NCBI GenBank assembly: GCA_029560585.1
Contig: JAKQKQ010000038.1
Location: 1 to 64,000, forward strand
Source of the DNA: Verrucomicrobiota bacterium
GTDB lineage: Bacteria > Verrucomicrobiota > Verrucomicrobiia > JADLBR01
DNA length: 64,000 nt
Direction of reading: 5' to 3'
In this document: piece by piece, positions 3,525 through 50,000 of the stretch
How the letters are laid out: each line of letters starts with the position of its first letter
How positions within the stretch are numbered: position 1 is the stretch's first letter
Position numbers and translations under genes: made by a program
Notes under the pieces: model-generated
Seen by the model: the letters and a program-made list of their open reading frames with translations, nothing else
The model's database searches: none
What the model was told of the DNA's origin: nothing

Positions 3525-3854
3525 ATGGCATCGGCGAACGTTGTCGAAGTGACCTCCGCAAATTTTGAGGCGGTGGTGGGTCGTGCCACGACTCCAGTCC
3601 TGTTGGATTTCTGGGCGGAATGGTGCGGTCCCTGCAAGATGCTCGCCCCCCTGATCGACAGCCTGGCCGACGAATTGGCCGGACGCTGTGTCGTGGGCAA
3701 AGTGAACGTGGATCAATCCCCCGACCTGGGCCAGCGCTTCAGCGTTCAGGCCATTCCCATGCTCATCCTCTTTAAGGGGGGACAGGTCCGCGATCAGATG
3801 GTCGGCGTCGCCTCCAAGAAAGACATCTTGGCGAAGTTGGCCGCGCTGGGGTGA
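3525..3854 (+). CDS. trxA: Thioredoxin
   Basis: A 109-residue single-domain thioredoxin, the usual length, with active site WCGPC (C34, C37) in the classic FWAEWCGPCK context and the cis-proline in AIPML near residue 78. There is no signal peptide, so it acts in the cytoplasm as a general disulfide reductant. It follows the proline-rich gene by 28 bp and precedes tolQ by 48 bp; a transcript running into the tol genes is possible. No thioredoxin reductase is nearby. Confidence 0.93.
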   Translation: MASANVVEVTSANFEAVVGRATTPVLLDFWAEWCGPCKMLAPLIDSLADELAGRCVVGKVNVDQSPDLGQRFSVQAIPMLILFKGGQVRDQMVGVASKKDILAKLAALG

Positions 3855-29378: not shown

Positions 29379-30725
29379 ATGAGGATACGGATGCTGAATC
29401 TGTTGTTGGTGCTGGTGGCTTTTGTCGGCGGCCTGCGTGCCGAGACCGATGCCCAGCGCGAGAAGCGCATGGCGTGGTGGACCGACGCGCGGTTCGGGAT
29501 GTTCATCCATTGGGGGCTATACGCGATGCCGGCGCGCCACGAGTGGGTGCGCAATCGGGAGAAGATCTCGGTCGAGGATTACCAGAAATATTTTGATCGG
29601 TTCGATCCGGATCTGTACCAGCCGCGCGAGTGGGCCCGGGCCGCGAAAGGCGCGGGGATGAAATATGCGGTGATCACCACCAAGCACCACGAGGGCTTCT
29701 GCCTGTGGGACACGAAACAGACGGACTACAAGGCCCCGAACACGCCGGCCAAGCGGGATCTGATCAGGGAGTTTGTCGATGCCTATCGGGCCGAGGGGCT
29801 CGGCGTTGGATTCTACTATTCGCTGATCGACTGGCATCATCCGGAATTCACCGTGGACCGGATCCATCCCATGCGGGACAACAAGGCCTTTCGGGAGAAG
29901 GCCAAGGGACGCGATATGAAGAAGTACGCGGCCTACATGCGCGAGCAGTTGCGCGAATTGCTCACTGGGTACGGCAAGGTGGACGCGCTGTTTCTTGATT
30001 TTTCGTACCCCGGCGAGGACGGGAAGGGTCGCGCCGACTGGGAATCGGAGAAACTATTGGCGCTGATCCGGGAGTTGCAGCCGGGGGTGATCATCAACGA
30101 CCGGCTCGACCTGTTGGACAGGCGGGACGGATGGGACTTCCGGACCCCCGAGCAATTCATGCCGAGGGAGTGGGTGAAGCACGAGGGGCAGCGTGTCCCG
30201 TGGGAGACGTGCCAGACGTTCTCGGGTTCGTGGGGCTACCACCGCGATGAGAACACCTGGAAGAGCGTCGATCAGTTGATTGCGATGCTTGCGGAGACCG
30301 TCAGCAAGGGTGGCAACCTCCTATTGAACGTCGGACCCACGGCCCGGGGCACTTTTGACGATCGGGCGCTGGCGCGCCTGAAAGGGATGGGCGATTGGAT
30401 GCGGGTCAACGGCCGCGCGATCTACGGATGCACGGAGGCGCCACCGGAGTTCAAACGACCTGACAACTGCCTTTTGACCTACAACCCGACAACGAAACGG
30501 CTGTACGTGCACGTGCTCCAGTGGCCGATGGGGAGGCTGAACCTCGACGGCTACGAGGGCAAAGTGAAGTACGCGCAGTTGTTGCACGATGCCTCCGAGG
30601 TCCTCGTCAGGAAAAAGAAGGGCGCATGGCTGGACGAGGGGGAAGGCTACGCCAGCACGGTGACGCTCGAGCTGCCGGTCGAAAAACCGCGCGTGGCAAT
30701 CCCCGTGGTGGAGCTGTTTCTCTAG
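29379..30725 (+). CDS. Exported GH29 alpha-L-fucosidase
   Basis: A 448-residue protein with a signal peptide (LLLVLVAFVGGLRA) and a GH29 catalytic barrel: RFGMFIHWGLYAMPARHEW, KYAVITTKHHEGFCLWDTK, GFYYSLIDWHHPE, and VDALFLDFSYPGEDG with the probable nucleophile aspartate. TFSGSWGYH and GNLLLNVGPTARG are further GH29 hallmarks, followed by a small C-terminal beta domain. It removes terminal alpha-L-fucose from glycans, here probably in the periplasm or outside. The 292 bp before it hold no gene, only a small hairpin (TTCGCTTGCAGCGAA). It is the last gene of the carbohydrate cluster. Confidence 0.93.
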   Translation: MRIRMLNLLLVLVAFVGGLRAETDAQREKRMAWWTDARFGMFIHWGLYAMPARHEWVRNREKISVEDYQKYFDRFDPDLYQPREWARAAKGAGMKYAVITTKHHEGFCLWDTKQTDYKAPNTPAKRDLIREFVDAYRAEGLGVGFYYSLIDWHHPEFTVDRIHPMRDNKAFREKAKGRDMKKYAAYMREQLRELLTGYGKVDALFLDFSYPGEDGKGRADWESEKLLALIRELQPGVIINDRLDLLDRRDGWDFRTPEQFMPREWVKHEGQRVPWETCQTFSGSWGYHRDENTWKSVDQLIAMLAETVSKGGNLLLNVGPTARGTFDDRALARLKGMGDWMRVNGRAIYGCTEAPPEFKRPDNCLLTYNPTTKRLYVHVLQWPMGRLNLDGYEGKVKYAQLLHDASEVLVRKKKGAWLDEGEGYASTVTLELPVEKPRVAIPVVELFL

Positions 30726-30850
30726 GCGCCGACGCAAAGTGTCGGGGCACAGAGCTCGTGATCGATCCGGGCTGGATCCCATGCCCCGCCGGGTGGGGAA
30801 TGCTGTGTGGGGCGCGTGTGTCAGGAGCCGCCCCTCACCCCCCGGCGCGT

Positions 30851-30934
30851 TGGCGTCTCACAGAGACGCCCTACAAGTATTGTGGGCCGCCTGTGCCAGG
30901 CGGCAGGCCGGCGTCTCGCAGAGACGCCCTACAA
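30851..30934. repeat. REP family A: one intact pair plus the left half of a second pair
   Basis: An intact pair (GGCGTCTCACAGAGACGCC, CCTACAAGTATTGTGGG, CCGCCTGTGCCAGGCGG) runs to about 30904. At 30909 a second hairpin, GGCGTCTCGCAGAGACGCC, ends in CTACAA. Its partner is not next to it but at 32520, on the far side of the IS110-type element. Confidence 0.75.
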
Positions 30935-30978
30935 CAATGGGCTTGGCCCCCACACGAATTGTAGATGGCATGGGTGTT

Positions 30979-31007
30979 GGTGGGTGAGCCGGATAGACTC
31001 ACCCACC
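30979..31007 (+). promoter_or_regulatory. Hairpin directly in front of the IS110 transposase start
   Basis: GGTGGGTGAG (30979-30988) pairs perfectly with CTCACCCACC (30998-31007), ending one base before ATG 31009. Outer GGGTGTTG and CAACACCC extend the stem around a bulge that contains the ATG. No free ribosome site is visible, so translation may be restrained, as in many insertion sequences. Confidence 0.5.
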
Positions 31008-31008
31008 T

Positions 31009-32087
31009 ATGAATAACAACAACACCCGGAGTGAAACTAACGGCGCCACCGGCGCCAAGACAAGGCTGATCAAGCTGGCGCTGGATACGCATGCGGATTT
31101 CATCATCGTGCGGCGCCAGATTGACGAGGCGGTCGCCCAGCCGCCGCAAAGGATGAGCCCGGGGCAGTTGGAACGCTTCGCGGCCAAGCAGAAGCGATTG
31201 GCCGGACGGGTGGTGTGCTGCTACGAGGCGGGCCGTTCGGCTTCGGATTATACCGGAGGCTCACGGCCCTCGGCCTCGAAGTGCTGGTGGTGCATCCGCA
31301 GAACTGGGACGAGCGCAACCGCAGGGTCAAGACCGACAAGAGGGATACCGGGGCGATGCTGGGGCGGCTGGACCGCTACCTGGCGGGCAACACCGAGGCC
31401 CTCGCGGTGGTGCAGGTGCCGGAACTCGGGCAGGAGATGGCCCGGGCCCGGAGCCGGCAGCGGGAGCAGATCCGCCGGCACCGCCAGCGCCCGGAGGCCC
31501 AGGGGCGCACGCTGATGCTGGAGTTCGGCCACCGCTTCCGGGGCCGCTGGTGGCAGCCGGGGCGCTGGGAGCCCATCGCCAAGGCCCTGCCGGAATCGCT
31601 CGCGGGCATGGTCGGATCCATCCGGGAGCTGATCCTGGTGCTCCACCGGCAAGTCGAGGCCCTCGGCCAGGGGCTCGAAAGCCAGGCCCCGGCCACCGGG
31701 CGCATCAAGGGCCTGGGCAGGCTCACGGAGGTGATCATCGGGCGGGAGATCATCGACCGGAACGCCTTCAAGAACCGCCGGGCGGTGGGCAGCGTCACCG
31801 GGCTCTGCCCCTCGGAGTGGAGCACCGGCAACAGCCGCCGGCAGGGCCCGATCTCCAAATGCGGGCGGCCGCGGTTGCGCCACGCGCTGATCGAGGCGGC
31901 CTGGCGCCTGGTGGGCTTTCAGCCCGACTATGGGCCGGTGAAAAAATGGGCCCCGCTGATGGCCGCCGGCACCCCGCCGGCGCGCAAGAAGGCGGCGGTG
32001 GCCATCGCCCGGCAGCTGGCCGTGGATCTGTGGCGCATCCGCACCGGACGGGCCACCGCCCCGGCACTGGGATTGGCCCTCTGCTGA
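31009..32087 (+). pseudogene. IS110-family transposase, interrupted by a frameshift
   Basis: Two frames together give about 365 residues, the normal IS110 length. The first has LALDTHAD and ends at VVCCYEAG; the second, one frame back, resumes at GPFGFGLYRRL and carries KTDKRDT (catalytic aspartates) and the C-terminal domain CPSEWSTGNSRRQGPISKCG, RLRHALIEAAW. The break is near 31230 in GCGGGCCG and looks like loss of one G. No slippery heptamer is visible, so inactivation or a sequencing error is likelier than programmed shifting. All DEDD residues survive across the two parts. Confidence 0.85.
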
Positions 32088-32519
32088 AACTTTGGAGACA
32101 ACGATGACATCGCGGCGGGGTTGTTTCCGGCGGCTTGGGTCCCGCTGCAGCGGGACCCACACCGGCACCGGCTATAGCCGCCCCGGCCTCCCGGGGCCGT
32201 GGCTCGCCGGGGCCGGCGCCGCCGCCAGAACAACCCCGCCGCTCGCCAACCCCTTGGAATGGGGCGCGCCCGCCAGCGGCCTTGGGTCGGACACGACCCG
32301 ATTTGTAGATTGGGCGCGCCTTGTTCCTCTCGCCGATGATCGCATAGATCATGTTGCACTCCGAAATGCCCGATGCGGCCGCGGATGTGCGGATAGCAGG
32401 TTGAGCCCGGCAACCCCGGTGCCTGCGAGAGGAGACGTTCCTTGGCTACCAGCCCAACACCCAAGCCCCTTCTAATCCTATGAAATGAAAACACACGCGC
32501 TCACTTGACAACCCCCATA
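32088..32519 (+). other. Long structured right end of the IS110 element, candidate bridge-RNA region
   Basis: No credible gene. The stretch is hairpin-rich: an outer stem GCGGCGGGGTTGTT (32112-32125) with AACAACCCCGCCGC (32229-32242), enclosing the perfect palindrome GGGTCCCGCTGCAGCGGGAC (continuing to 32158) and further GC stems, then a small hairpin GGGTCGGACACGACCC at 32285-32300. In IS1111-type relatives the non-coding right end encodes the guide RNA that pairs with target and donor DNA. A transcript here is inferred, not shown. Confidence 0.45.
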
Positions 32520-32542
32520 GCAGGCCGCCTGTGTCAGGCGGC
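32520..32542. repeat. REP family A hairpin, right half of the split pair
   Basis: GCAGG followed by CCGCCTGTGTCAGGCGG, matching the right-hand hairpin of intact pairs. It is separated from its left half (30909) by the IS110-type element and lies 60 bp before the REP transposase start. Confidence 0.75.
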
Positions 32543-32602
32543 GGATCGGTTGCGTGGGATTTGTCTTGCCTTCGACCGGTCGCGCCTGAAATCCTCAACC
32601 GC

Positions 32603-33058
32603 ATGGCCAGACCACCGCGTGTGCCGGTGTGGCTGCCGTGGGATCAGCCCGTCATTTACTTCGTGACGCTTGGCGTTGCCGGGCGTCGGCGCGTGCTCCA
32701 CAACGCGGGGGCATGGGACGCATGCCGCCATACGCTGGATCTACTGGACCGGTGGCAGACTCTCGCATGCACCTTCATGCCCGACCATGGCCACTTTCTG
32801 GTGGCACCCGTCTGGAACAGGGATGAGCCGCTCGGTCAGTGGATGAAATGGTCCAAGCGATGGTTCCGCGAGTCCAATCCCCACGAATGGGAGTGGCAGG
32901 AGGGCGGATTCGACCGGCTCTTGCGCGGGTTTGAAAGCGCCGAGGAGAAATGGCGGTACATCCGGGAGAATCCCGTGCGAGCGGGATTGGTTTCACACTG
33001 GAGCGAGTGGCCGTACTCCTTCGGATTTGGCACAGAGAATTGCAGGCCGCCTCTGTGA
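32603..33058 (+). CDS. REP-associated tyrosine transposase (RAYT, Y1 HUH family)
   Basis: A 151-residue single-domain HUH nuclease of the TnpA-REP type. It has the HUH motif MPDHGHFLV (H62, H64), a tyrosine in WRYIRENPVRAGLV (Y119) and the family's WRRF/GFDR-type context (GGFDRLLRGFES). RAYTs cut and join single-stranded REP hairpins and are thought to spread them. Family-A REP hairpins lie just upstream (32520) and overlap its stop codon (33041), so this gene and its flanks look like a complete REP-RAYT unit. It appears intact. ATG 32603 is the first plausible start after the REP. Confidence 0.88.
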   Translation: MARPPRVPVWLPWDQPVIYFVTLGVAGRRRVLHNAGAWDACRHTLDLLDRWQTLACTFMPDHGHFLVAPVWNRDEPLGQWMKWSKRWFRESNPHEWEWQEGGFDRLLRGFESAEEKWRYIRENPVRAGLVSHWSEWPYSFGFGTENCRPPL

Positions 33059-33148
33059 GGCGGTGGCGAGTCATCGGGTGGCGTCTGACACGGACGCCCC
33101 ACAAGATTAGCCGAGGGGAAGGTCGGCGTCTCGCAGAGACGCCCCACA
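33041..33148. repeat. Three REP family A hairpins after the RAYT gene
   Basis: TGCAGGCCGCC TCTGTGAGGCGG (33041-33063) overlaps the RAYT stop. GGCGTCTGACACGGACGCCC plus CACAA (33080-33104) and GGCGTCTCGCAGAGACGCCC plus CACA (33124-33148) follow in the opposite polarity. Together with 32520 they flank the RAYT. Confidence 0.75.
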
Positions 33149-33187
33149 GATCCTGTTGCAGGGCCCGGTCGAAACGGGGGCGTGGGA

Positions 33188-34201
33188 TCAGCCCTGTTTT
33201 TTGCCCTTGTAGCGCTCCATAGCGGGGCCGGAGTGTTTTTCGGCCAGCTCGATGAGGCGGTCGCGCTCGGCGGCGGCCATGCCCGTGAATCCCCGGAGGA
33301 CGGAGGTGTTTTCCGCGACCTCCTCGGTGCTCGTGCAGCCGCTGACGAGCGCCGCTATGGGCAGAGAGTAAACGTATTCGTGCATCTGGCGGGGCGTGAC
33401 ACCGGATGTAGTGAGCGGGGCGGGGCGGGGCTCCTTTCCGAATCCGCCACGGCCGGTCATCTGACCGTACGCCATGGTTTTCATGGCGAGAATGCCGTAT
33501 TTCCGCTCCACGAGCCTGGGCAGGACATTGATGGTGAAGGACTCGTGGTGGGGATCGCACAGGTTGATGGGCATCTGGCAGGTATCGAGGTCGATGCCGC
33601 GGGAGGCCAGCGCCTCGAGCATCCTGAGATGCGCGCGATAGTCGACGTGGCCCGTGAAGCCAATGTATTTCACTTTGCCGGATTCCTTGGCCTTGAGAAA
33701 GACGTCGAGGACGCCGTCGCGGATGCGGTCATCGACGTCTTTCGGTGACTCGATCATGTGGATCTGCCAGAGGTCGAGGTAATCGCATTTCATGCGCGAA
33801 AGGGCCTCGTCCAATTGTCTGGACGCCTCGGGGCCTGTCTTCAAAGCGCACTTGGTCATGATGAACGCGACGTCACGGTATTTTGGCGAAAGGAACAGCC
33901 CATAGCGTCGCTCGGCCTCACCCTTGCCATAGTTGTAGGCGTTATCGAAGAATCGGCAGCCCATCTCGAGAGCCTTCTCGATGATGGCCTGTGATTCCGC
34001 CTCGGTGCGGTCTTTCTCCACGTGATGGCCCCCGAGGCAGAAGGCCGTGACGCTTGTGCCGGTTTTGCCGAGCGCGCGCTGCGGGAGCAGGGTGCCAAGG
34101 CGGTCGGATGTCGGCGTGGCCGAGTGGGTCGGGGTCTGGGCGAGGGCGGCACCGGCCGTGGCCGCGCCGAGCGTAGCTAGGAACGCGCGTCGATTGAGCA
34201 T
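33188..34201 (-). CDS. Tat-exported aldo/keto reductase
   Basis: A 337-residue protein with a twin-arginine signal (LNRRAFLATLGAATAGAALA) and an aldo/keto reductase barrel: VTAFCLGGHHV, FFDNAYNYGKGEAERRYG with catalytic Asp and Tyr, MTKCALKTG with the Lys, and DLWQIHMI with the His. The start at 34201 follows GGAGGTT, and a long upstream extension is rejected because it runs through the clpS gene. PVC genomes carry many exported aldo/keto reductases of unknown substrate. No cysteine cluster is seen at the C-terminus. Confidence 0.86.
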   Translation of the reverse strand: MLNRRAFLATLGAATAGAALAQTPTHSATPTSDRLGTLLPQRALGKTGTSVTAFCLGGHHVEKDRTEAESQAIIEKALEMGCRFFDNAYNYGKGEAERRYGLFLSPKYRDVAFIMTKCALKTGPEASRQLDEALSRMKCDYLDLWQIHMIESPKDVDDRIRDGVLDVFLKAKESGKVKYIGFTGHVDYRAHLRMLEALASRGIDLDTCQMPINLCDPHHESFTINVLPRLVERKYGILAMKTMAYGQMTGRGGFGKEPRPAPLTTSGVTPRQMHEYVYSLPIAALVSGCTSTEEVAENTSVLRGFTGMAAAERDRLIELAEKHSGPAMERYKGKKQG

Positions 34202-37987: not shown

Positions 37988-38238
37988 GCGCACGGGGGGG
38001 ACGCCGGCCTGGGCGTCCGCGATTCATCCGCGTTCCGTGGCCAACGCGGCCCGTGAGGCGAGCGTGTCTCAAAACCTCTGAACCGTGCCGCCTGGCACAG
38101 GCGGCCTACAAATTTTGTAGGGCATCTCTGCGAGATGCCGTGCATTGTCGCGCGCCGCACACCATTGGAAGTCCTCTCTATCATCAGATGGGCATTGATT
38201 GTTGGGTGTTCCGTGTTGGGCGTTTGAGTTTTGAGACA
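37988..38238. repeat. Copy 2 of the ~240-bp repeat, complete MITE-like unit
   Basis: The inverse of 1-246. The core unit is bounded by TGTCTCAAAAC (38065-38075) and GTTTTGAGACA (38228-38238), perfect 11-bp terminal inverted repeats 174 bp apart end to end. It includes a family-A REP pair at 38087-38139. Similarity to copy 1 continues past the unit to about 37988. It codes for nothing I can support. The rest of the gap to 38428 is the leader of the next gene. Confidence 0.82.
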
Positions 38239-49847: not shown

Positions 49848-50000
49848 CTCAAAACGCGAACGCCCTACAAAATTTGTAGGCCGCCTGTGTCAGGCGGCGC
49901 TGTTCAGAGGTTTTGAGACACTCCCGCCTCGCGGGTCGCGAATGAGAGGTGCCTTTCGCTACCCGGTGGGGCGCGGACGCCGGGGCCGGCGTCCCTCCCA
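49848..50000. repeat. Copy 3 of the ~240-bp repeat, internally deleted
   Basis: A degenerate left end (GGCTCAAAACGCGAACGCCC) joins directly to CTACAAAATTTGTAGG, so about 95 bp present in copy 2 are missing. The REP hairpin CCGCCTGTGTCAGGCGG and the right end GTTTTGAGACA (49910-49920) remain, and flank similarity continues to the GGACGCCGGGGCCGGCGTCC hairpin near 50000. From 50001 to 50266 I see only short palindromes and no gene. Confidence 0.75.

What the first reader, a model, noticed from the sequence alone, without database searches (positions are those of the whole stretch)
30851..32542. IS110-type element inserted exactly in the linker of a REP pair
Intact family-A REP pairs read hairpin, CCTAC, short A/T linker, GTAGG, hairpin. 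Here the left hairpin ends CCCTACAACAAT at about 30940 and the matching right hairpin starts GCAGG at 32520, with an IS110-type element of about 1.58 kb between. Established: IS110-family elements such as IS621 target REP sequences. This gives natural element limits and a reconstructible target site in a lineage where it may not have been described.
Basis: partly seen in the sequence, partly recalled or inferred. Interest (0 to 1): 0.68.

Follow-up and report, generated by a model that had tools for sequence, protein, structure and literature searches.

The report
RNA-guided jumping gene inside a REP
A now broken mobile element of the IS1111/IS110 kind sits exactly between the GTAG tag and the hairpin of a short repeated DNA palindrome, and its own guide RNA carries matching letters for both sides of that site; this is a new member of a known kind of element, in a lineage where I found no description of it.

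Summary
Ends conserved across relatives place the element at window 30963-32521 (1559 bp), between ...GAATTGT-AG and AG-GCCGCCTGTGTCAGGCGGC. It splits one REP between its GTAG tag and its hairpin, with core dinucleotide AG. The 28-nt spacer to the left hairpin is not the usual 6-7 nt linker of intact pairs. The element is IS1111-type: subterminal inverted repeats with 7/3-bp outer extensions, a long downstream noncoding end, and target guides in IS1111 order. The transposase is frameshifted, so this single copy is probably dead. The noncoding end holds a bridge/seeker RNA whose target loop carries GCGGC-CT (against the REP stem) and TTTGT-AG (the REP tag). Across relatives, guides match their own targets far better than shuffled ones (0 of 100,000 permutations for each half), and 9 of 11 consensus RNA pairs show compensatory changes. 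Relatives in other genomes carry guides for those hosts' own, different REP stems. REP-targeting IS110/IS1111 elements (IS621, ISPa11) and RNA guidance are already known. New here: the clade, its repeated retargeting, and REP stems tracked host by host.

The parts
30963..32521 (+). IS1111-type element, 1559 bp (AG core at 30963-30964; second AG at 32522-32523)
   Evidence: clade-wide conserved ends; length and ends; truncated relatives start at the same base
30970..30983 (+). left subterminal inverted repeat, 7 bp from the left limit
32505..32518 (-). right subterminal inverted repeat, 3 bp from the right limit (9 of 14 matching the left one; ATGGGNGTTG core)
31009..32087 (+). DEDD/Ser transposase gene, broken by a net -1 frameshift near 31229-31234; frames 31009-31515 and 31215-32087
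32261..32321 (+). target-binding stem-loop of the bridge/seeker RNA
   Evidence: fold of 32260-32332: z -3.30, 0 of 200 shuffles as stable; helix covariation in relatives
32276..32282 (+). right target guide GCGGC-CT, complement of AG-GCCGC of the REP stem
32301..32308 (+). left target guide ATTTGT-AG, same letters as the REP tag side (target AATTGT-AG)
32326..32432 (+). donor-binding multiloop, closed by CCTCTCGC/GCGAGAGG
   Evidence: stability of this part alone not beyond shuffles: 26 of 200
32348..32354 (+). right donor guide ATCAT-GT (against left end AG-ATGGC; wobble at one place)
32393..32399 (+). left donor guide ATAGC-AG, identical to the element's right end
30961..30964 (+). GTAG tag of the interrupted REP, left of the element (AG = core)
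32524..32542 (+). hairpin of the interrupted REP, right of the element
30910..30933 (+). left hairpin GGCGTCTCGCAGAGACGCC-CTACA, 28 nt of spacer away from the interrupted GTAG
32603..33058 (+). RAYT-like gene (REP-associated tyrosine transposase) flanked by REPs; the element sits about 80 bp before its likely ATG
   Evidence: NF047646 at 63 bits, cut-off 80; repeats at 33046, 33080, 33125

Best explanation
This is a decayed, single-copy IS1111-type (IS110 family) insertion sequence. While active, it excised as a circle and recombined at a 2-bp AG core into the joint between the GTAG tag and the stem of a REP. A structured RNA from its 3' noncoding end chose the site: one loop base-paired with both sides of the REP joint (left guide = tag side, right guide = complement of the stem), and the other loop with the joined element ends. 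Shown by sequence: the ends, the target, guide/target and guide/donor matches, conserved RNA fold, broken transposase. Inferred from IS621, ISPa11 and ISEc11: circle, recombination chemistry, RNA bound by the transposase.
For: Ends conserved in relatives. Reconstructed site is a REP repeated in this genome. Guide-target match: whole-region scan, 34 non-redundant elements, own 7.35 of 9 against 6.26 for other elements' targets, p = 5e-5. Region restricted, 29 elements: 6.97 of 8 against 5.02, 0 of 100,000 permutations; left guide, 17 elements: 3.88 of 6 against 1.89, 0 of 100,000. Exact 12-mer TTTGTAGGCCGC (guide-defined) 61 times in this genome, 3 for the reversed control. RNA: 91.9% of cells paired, 27-48% when slid; 9 of 11 pairs with double changes; the window row keeps 11 of 11. 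Donor guide follows the variable left-end base in 15 of 19, wobble in 2, no match in 2. sTIRs only in register at 7/3 bp.
Against: The window's own right guide matches only 5 stem bases plus the core (6 of 8; in the wider scan 16 of 33 other elements' targets score at least as well), so the window alone would not prove guidance. The donor loop is not more stable than shuffles. Some relatives fit poorly: L064 5/8, L048 5/8; L024, L040, L048, L064, L069, L083 do no better with their own target than with most others. Two truncated relatives (C147; G002 C395) have TTACGGAT-AG on their left, not a GTAG tag. No RNA or transposition was observed.
Confidence: 0.92

Rival explanations
1. One reading: the element is 30936-32519 and lies in the linker of a canonical REP pair.
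For: Hairpins on both sides face each other; CAAT|GGG and CCAT|AGC could be read as a shared AT core.
Against: The relatives with readable ends begin at AG-ATG[AGC]CATG and end at CATAGC-AG; truncated copies start at the same base; intact pairs have 6-7 nt linkers; the 18-nt piece 30938-30955 has no exact second copy and one 2-mismatch hit in this genome; a RAYT paralogue on C287 shares the hairpin and the following ACAA..ATGGG without the element.
Confidence: 0.03
2. Chance: an element with no REP preference happened to land beside REPs, which are dense around this RAYT gene.
For: REPs flank the RAYT-like gene; only one copy in the genome; several relatives use non-REP sites.
Against: The break is at the exact GTAG/stem joint, and the element's own target loop carries both halves. 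Stems start right after the insertion point in 8 of 15 relatives with GTAG/GGAG guides and 0 of 23 others (Fisher p 1.3e-4).
Confidence: 0.04
3. The element is still active, the two frames being joined by programmed frameshifting or the frameshift being an assembly error.
For: Both halves keep recognisable DEDD and C-terminal motifs; the break lies in a GGGCC tract.
Against: Relatives L012-L015 have one open frame; single copy, diverged, with weakened guide and donor pairing.
Confidence: 0.15

Closest known systems
ISPa11 (IS1111 group, Pseudomonas aeruginosa)
   Same: IS1111-type, downstream noncoding RNA, top-strand match before bottom-strand match, inserts in REPs (passages of PMC11187229; Results of PMC1525189)
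   Different: Different host phylum (by inference) and REP family; insertion reported between bases 6 and 7 of the Pseudomonas REP, not compared base by base here
IS621 (IS110 group, Escherichia coli)
   Same: Bridge RNA with target and donor loops; target ATCAGGCCTAC, core CT (passages of PMC11208160), whose reverse complement GT-AG-GCCTGAT is the same GTAG/stem joint
   Different: Opposite orientation in the REP; in the IS110 group the RNA lies mostly in the left end and the guides are in reverse order
ISPpu9 / ISPpu10, ISRm19, ISRm22, ISPsy8
   Same: Reported as REP-specific insertions
   Different: Their guide RNAs and families were not compared here; ISPsy8 and ISRm22 insert at the hairpin axis
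GTAG-tagged REPs and RAYTs
   Same: The target is a GTAG-tagged palindrome beside a RAYT-like gene; O. terrae (Verrucomicrobia) is said to be highly enriched in GTAG repeats (PMC3733652, passages)
   Different: That paper's main text holds no mention of IS110 (0 occurrences)

Membership tests
IS110 family (IS110 + IS1111 groups) | Transposase_20 / Ser domain | tested here: met
   PF02371 58.2 bits, cut-off 21.3
[quoted passage not shown]
   No PF01548 hit to either half of the broken window gene; the relative L012 hits at 33.7 bits, cut-off 29; D, E and DD motifs are seen in the two window frames
IS110 family (IS110 + IS1111 groups) | NCBIfam transpos_IS110 curated cut-off | tested here: not met
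   123.9 bits against 140 for the partial 290-aa frame; full frame not tested because it is broken. This is a score threshold, not a defining trait
IS1111 group | subterminal inverted repeats with 7-bp left and 3-bp right extensions | tested here: met
   8.91 of 14 in register, 2.43-5.26 at eight other shifts, 23 elements; window 9 of 14. The window's repeat is imperfect, against the usual near-perfect 11-13 bp
IS1111 group | long noncoding region downstream of tnp holding the guide RNA | tested here: met
   436 nt from stop to right end; covarying RNA structure
IS1111 group | top-strand complement precedes bottom-strand match in the RNA | tested here: met
   right guide 5' of left guide in the window and relatives; rule from PMC11187229
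IS1111 group | circular intermediate, RNA bound to transposase | not testable with these tools
   needs experiments
GTAG-tagged REP (target) | GTAG tag plus hairpin, many copies | tested here: met
   61+48 placements, control 0
RAYT (neighbouring gene) | REP_Tyr_transpos model at cut-off | tested here: not met
   63 bits against 80; 62.6 in the genome search, where none of the 8 matches reaches the cut-off. Called RAYT-like for that reason

The most novel reading that the evidence does not exclude
A Verrucomicrobiota-centred IS1111 clade lives on the REP/RAYT system: many members keep a left guide for the near-universal REP tag (GTAG, or GGAG) and change mainly the right guide to fit the stem of whichever REP family fills their host, so that the same joint is cut in unrelated REPs. 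IS621 cuts the same joint from the other strand, so the GTAG/stem joint would be a recurrent, RNA-readable landing site for the whole IS110 family.
Probability: 0.5. Interest if true: 0.6.

Novelty: new member of a known kind. Interest (0 to 1): 0.42.

Why it matters
It gives natural ends, a rebuilt target and a set of guide/target pairs for IS110-family elements in a group (mostly Verrucomicrobiota by record title) for which my paper searches found no description. The relatives form a natural reprogramming series: different REP stems with matching right guides, including two near-identical copies in one genome whose guide and target differ at the same base. That is direct comparative evidence of how these RNA-guided recombinases change target, and a source of new ones to test.

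Tried and rejected
Rejected: other full copies in this genome (none; the two other IS110 transposases on C106 were not compared with this element).

Led nowhere: the first genome-contig scan with the window protein alone (28 pattern matches, 0 relatives); Rfam scan of 30800-33300 (two hits far below gathering scores); PDB sequence search with the partial transposase (0 hits at E 0.01); search for the spacer piece TGGGCTTGGCCCCCACAC (only weak 2-mismatch hits).

Poor test: TGTAGGAGCGGC with 1 mismatch in the genomes of L071, L069, L044, L024, L030 and the window gave fewer hits than its reversed control in all six. The exact matches (9 in the L071 genome, 1 in the L024 genome, 0 listed for L069, L044 and the window genome, listing of L030 cut off) are only suggestive. 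L054's host showed no excess of GTAGGGCGGGTNNNNGACCCGCC (5 against 17 control), though L054's right flank is cut by the contig end after 7 bases.

Rows dropped: of 80 loci plus L012, L019 and the window (83), 39 had a resolved right end, donor-loop motif and at least 7 flanking bases; 34 after removing equal targets; 6 of the 39 had no AGAT left-guide anchor and were left out (L026, L040, L060, L065, L066, L083), giving 33, then 29 non-redundant; only 17 of these have a readable left flank for the left-guide test. The other relatives (L013-L016, L018, L020, L021) were not put in these counts. The RNA alignment used 28 of the 35 regions found (L033, L034, L047, L072, L097, L101, L019 left out as near-copies). 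The tree used 73 of the 83 proteins. The stem test lists 39 rows, 38 with enough flank, near-copies included. My stem rule is strict: L026 looks like a short hairpin and counts as 0. One search also used a looser left-guide anchor (AGA[TG]), which read other letters than for L031, L043 and L101; with the reading L043 would move to the GTAG group without a stem (8 of 16 against 0 of 22).

Full report
WHAT IS THERE. Window 30501-32900 was read. A transposase of the IS110 family lies between two REP-like hairpins. It is in two frames: 31009-31515 carries the start (MNNNN..., as in the relative L012) up to CYEAG, and 31215-32087 carries the rest, with KTDKRD and the C-terminal domain. The gene is therefore frameshifted near 31229-31234. 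Only one complete copy is found in the 7.06-Mb genome, which is in 336 contigs.

LIMITS. Two truncated relatives, one in the same genome (C147) and one in the single same-genus genome (C395), start to match at TAG-ATGGCATGG and not before. A scan of genome contigs with an alignment of five transposases gave 80 relatives. By record title 72 are Verrucomicrobiota, 6 belong to other phyla and 2 say only 'bacterium'. Those with readable ends share ...AG|ATG[AGC]CATG at the left and ...CATAGC-AG| at the right. In the window this gives 30963-32521 with AG at 32522-32523. The inverted repeats then lie 7 bp and 3 bp from the limits, the IS1111 signature, and match only in that register: 8.91 of 14 against 2.43-5.26 at eight shifts, 23 elements.

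TARGET. Joining the flanks gives GAATTGTAG|GCCGCCTGTGTCAGGCGGC. GTAGGCCGCCTGTGNCAGGCGGC (3 mismatches) has 61+48 placements in the genome, 60 exact among those listed, control 0. Intact pairs read hairpin-CTAC-AAAATTT-GTAG-hairpin, for instance in 89-141, 38087-38139 and (left hairpin diverged) 49863-49898; 24 of 24 distinct pairs caught by one pattern in the fetched loci and the window have 6-7 nt between CTAC and the tag. Here the gap is 28 nt. A second RAYT-like locus on C287 (83% identical over 565 bp) has the same left hairpin followed by ACAA-ATGGG but no element and no right hairpin. So the left hairpin is probably part of the RAYT flank, and the element has broken the right REP at its tag/stem joint. 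A separate REP pair (C109:52285) reads GTAG-CAG-GCCGCC, three bases more than usual; whether this is a scar is unknown.

GUIDE RNA. The 3' noncoding end of the window folds into a stem-loop (32261-32321, z -3.30, 0 of 200 shuffles as stable). Its internal loop carries GCGGC-CT on the 5' side and ATTTGT-AG on the 3' side: the complement of the REP stem after the core, and the tag side before it. A multiloop follows with ATCAT-GT and ATAGC-AG, fitting the left and right ends. An alignment of the window and 27 relatives, with AGAT after the left guide invariant and GGATAGCAG nearly so, gives a consensus of 11 pairs, 9 with compensatory changes. Counted on the alignment, 91.9% of cells pair, against 73.3% after shuffling and 27-48% when the partner is slid; all 11 pairs form in the window.

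DOES THE GUIDE MATCH THE TARGET? In a scan of up to 190 nt before the donor-loop motif, with no anchor, 34 non-redundant elements match their own right flank at 7.35 of 9 against 6.26 for others' flanks (permutation p 5e-5). Restricted to the loop, 29 elements score 6.97 of 8 against 5.02 (0 of 100,000), and 17 left guides score 3.88 of 6 against 1.89 (0 of 100,000). Related elements share both guide and target, so these numbers are not independent events. The window itself is a middling case: 6 of 8, five stem bases plus core. L064 and L048 fit badly (5 of 8), and in the wider scan L024, L040, L048, L064, L069 and L083 do no better with their own target than with most others. Two copies in G379 (L012, L019; 98% identical) differ at one base of the right guide (CATGCCC, CGTGCCC) and at the matching base of the target (GGGCATGC, GGGCACGC). 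The donor guide follows the variable base of the left end in 15 of 19, by wobble in 2 (the window among them), and not in 2.

HOSTS AND REPs. In G379 the tag is GGAG: TGGAGGGGCAYGCNNNGTCRTG (2 mismatches) has 249 placements, control 0, and 0-2 in each of four other genomes. In the host of L070, GTAGGGCGGGTNNNNGACCCGCC (3 mismatches) has 240 placements, control 7. In the host of L064 it has 267, control 13. L064's copy sits at a different joint, but its guide (CCCGCC-CT) fits that abundant REP. In L054's host it has 5, control 17: no such REP was found there. Stems begin right after the insertion point in 8 of 15 relatives with GTAG/GGAG guides and in 0 of 23 others (Fisher p 1.3e-4, or 2.2e-4 with near-copies removed). 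On a tree of 73 transposases (SH-aLRT only, many weak forks; the window on a long branch, 52% identical to its best match) the guide type changes at least 6 times among 32 rows. Retargeting has been frequent, and REP targeting is not the rule for the whole clade.

COMPARISON. REP-specific insertion by IS elements, ISPa11 among them, was reported in 2006 (PMC1525189: abstract and Results). RNA guidance, the order of the guides and the place of the noncoding RNA in IS1111 against IS110 are in PMC11187229 and PMC11208160 (passages); ISPa11 is an IS1111 element with REP targets and a bound RNA. IS621's target ATCAGGCCTAC is, reversed, GT-AG-GCCTGAT: the same joint, entered from the other strand. 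I infer this from the letters; I did not see it stated. Paper searches IS1111 + 'repetitive extragenic palindromic' (4 papers), IS110 + REP + RAYT (3), IS1111 + Verrucomicrobia (0), and bridge RNA / REP elements / reprogram / IS110 (12 with three of the four terms) listed no paper whose title or shown abstract start describes this clade. The library holds open-licence papers only.

VERDICT. It is an ordinary kind of element (REP-targeting, RNA-guided IS1111) in a little-studied setting; what lifts it is the natural series of guides that follow each host's REP stem. That the host is a member of Verrucomicrobiota is my inference from the titles of the relatives; the genome itself is unnamed.

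Noticed in passing
window 32603-33058; REPs at 30852, 30910, 32524, 33046, 33080, 33125: A RAYT-like gene flanked by REPs on both sides (REPtron-like); the element has inserted about 80 bp before its likely start. Eight RAYT-like stretches in the genome, none over the model's cut-off.
   Followed up: partly
L134 (C287:31562-32126): Second RAYT-like locus, 83% identical, same left hairpin, no insertion.
   Followed up: yes
L003 (C109:52285): A REP pair with GTAG-CAG-GCCGCC, three extra bases at the joint where the element inserts; possibly an excision scar, possibly chance.
   Followed up: no
L002 (C147:102885-103046): Truncated left end of a related element (75%), flanked by TTACGGATAG; the truncated copy in the same-genus genome (L009) shares this flank. 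The C147 one lies about 1.4 kb from another RAYT-like stretch (C147:104476).
   Followed up: no
L017 (G379:C7): A copy that stops in its noncoding end exactly at the left guide TTGGAG and continues as a REP stem GGGCATGC, as if the DNA of its own guide had served as target half.
   Followed up: no
L012 and L019 (G379): 98%-identical copies whose right guide and target differ at the same base.
   Followed up: partly
L021 (G379:C11): Two broken copies joined head to tail.
   Followed up: no
window 32138-32160: Palindrome GGGTCCCGCTGCAGCGGGACCC between transposase and guide RNA; not seen at that place in the relatives printed.
   Followed up: no
G000 C106:1640-1900 and 3613-3831: Two other IS110-family transposases about 1.7 kb apart.
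   Followed up: no
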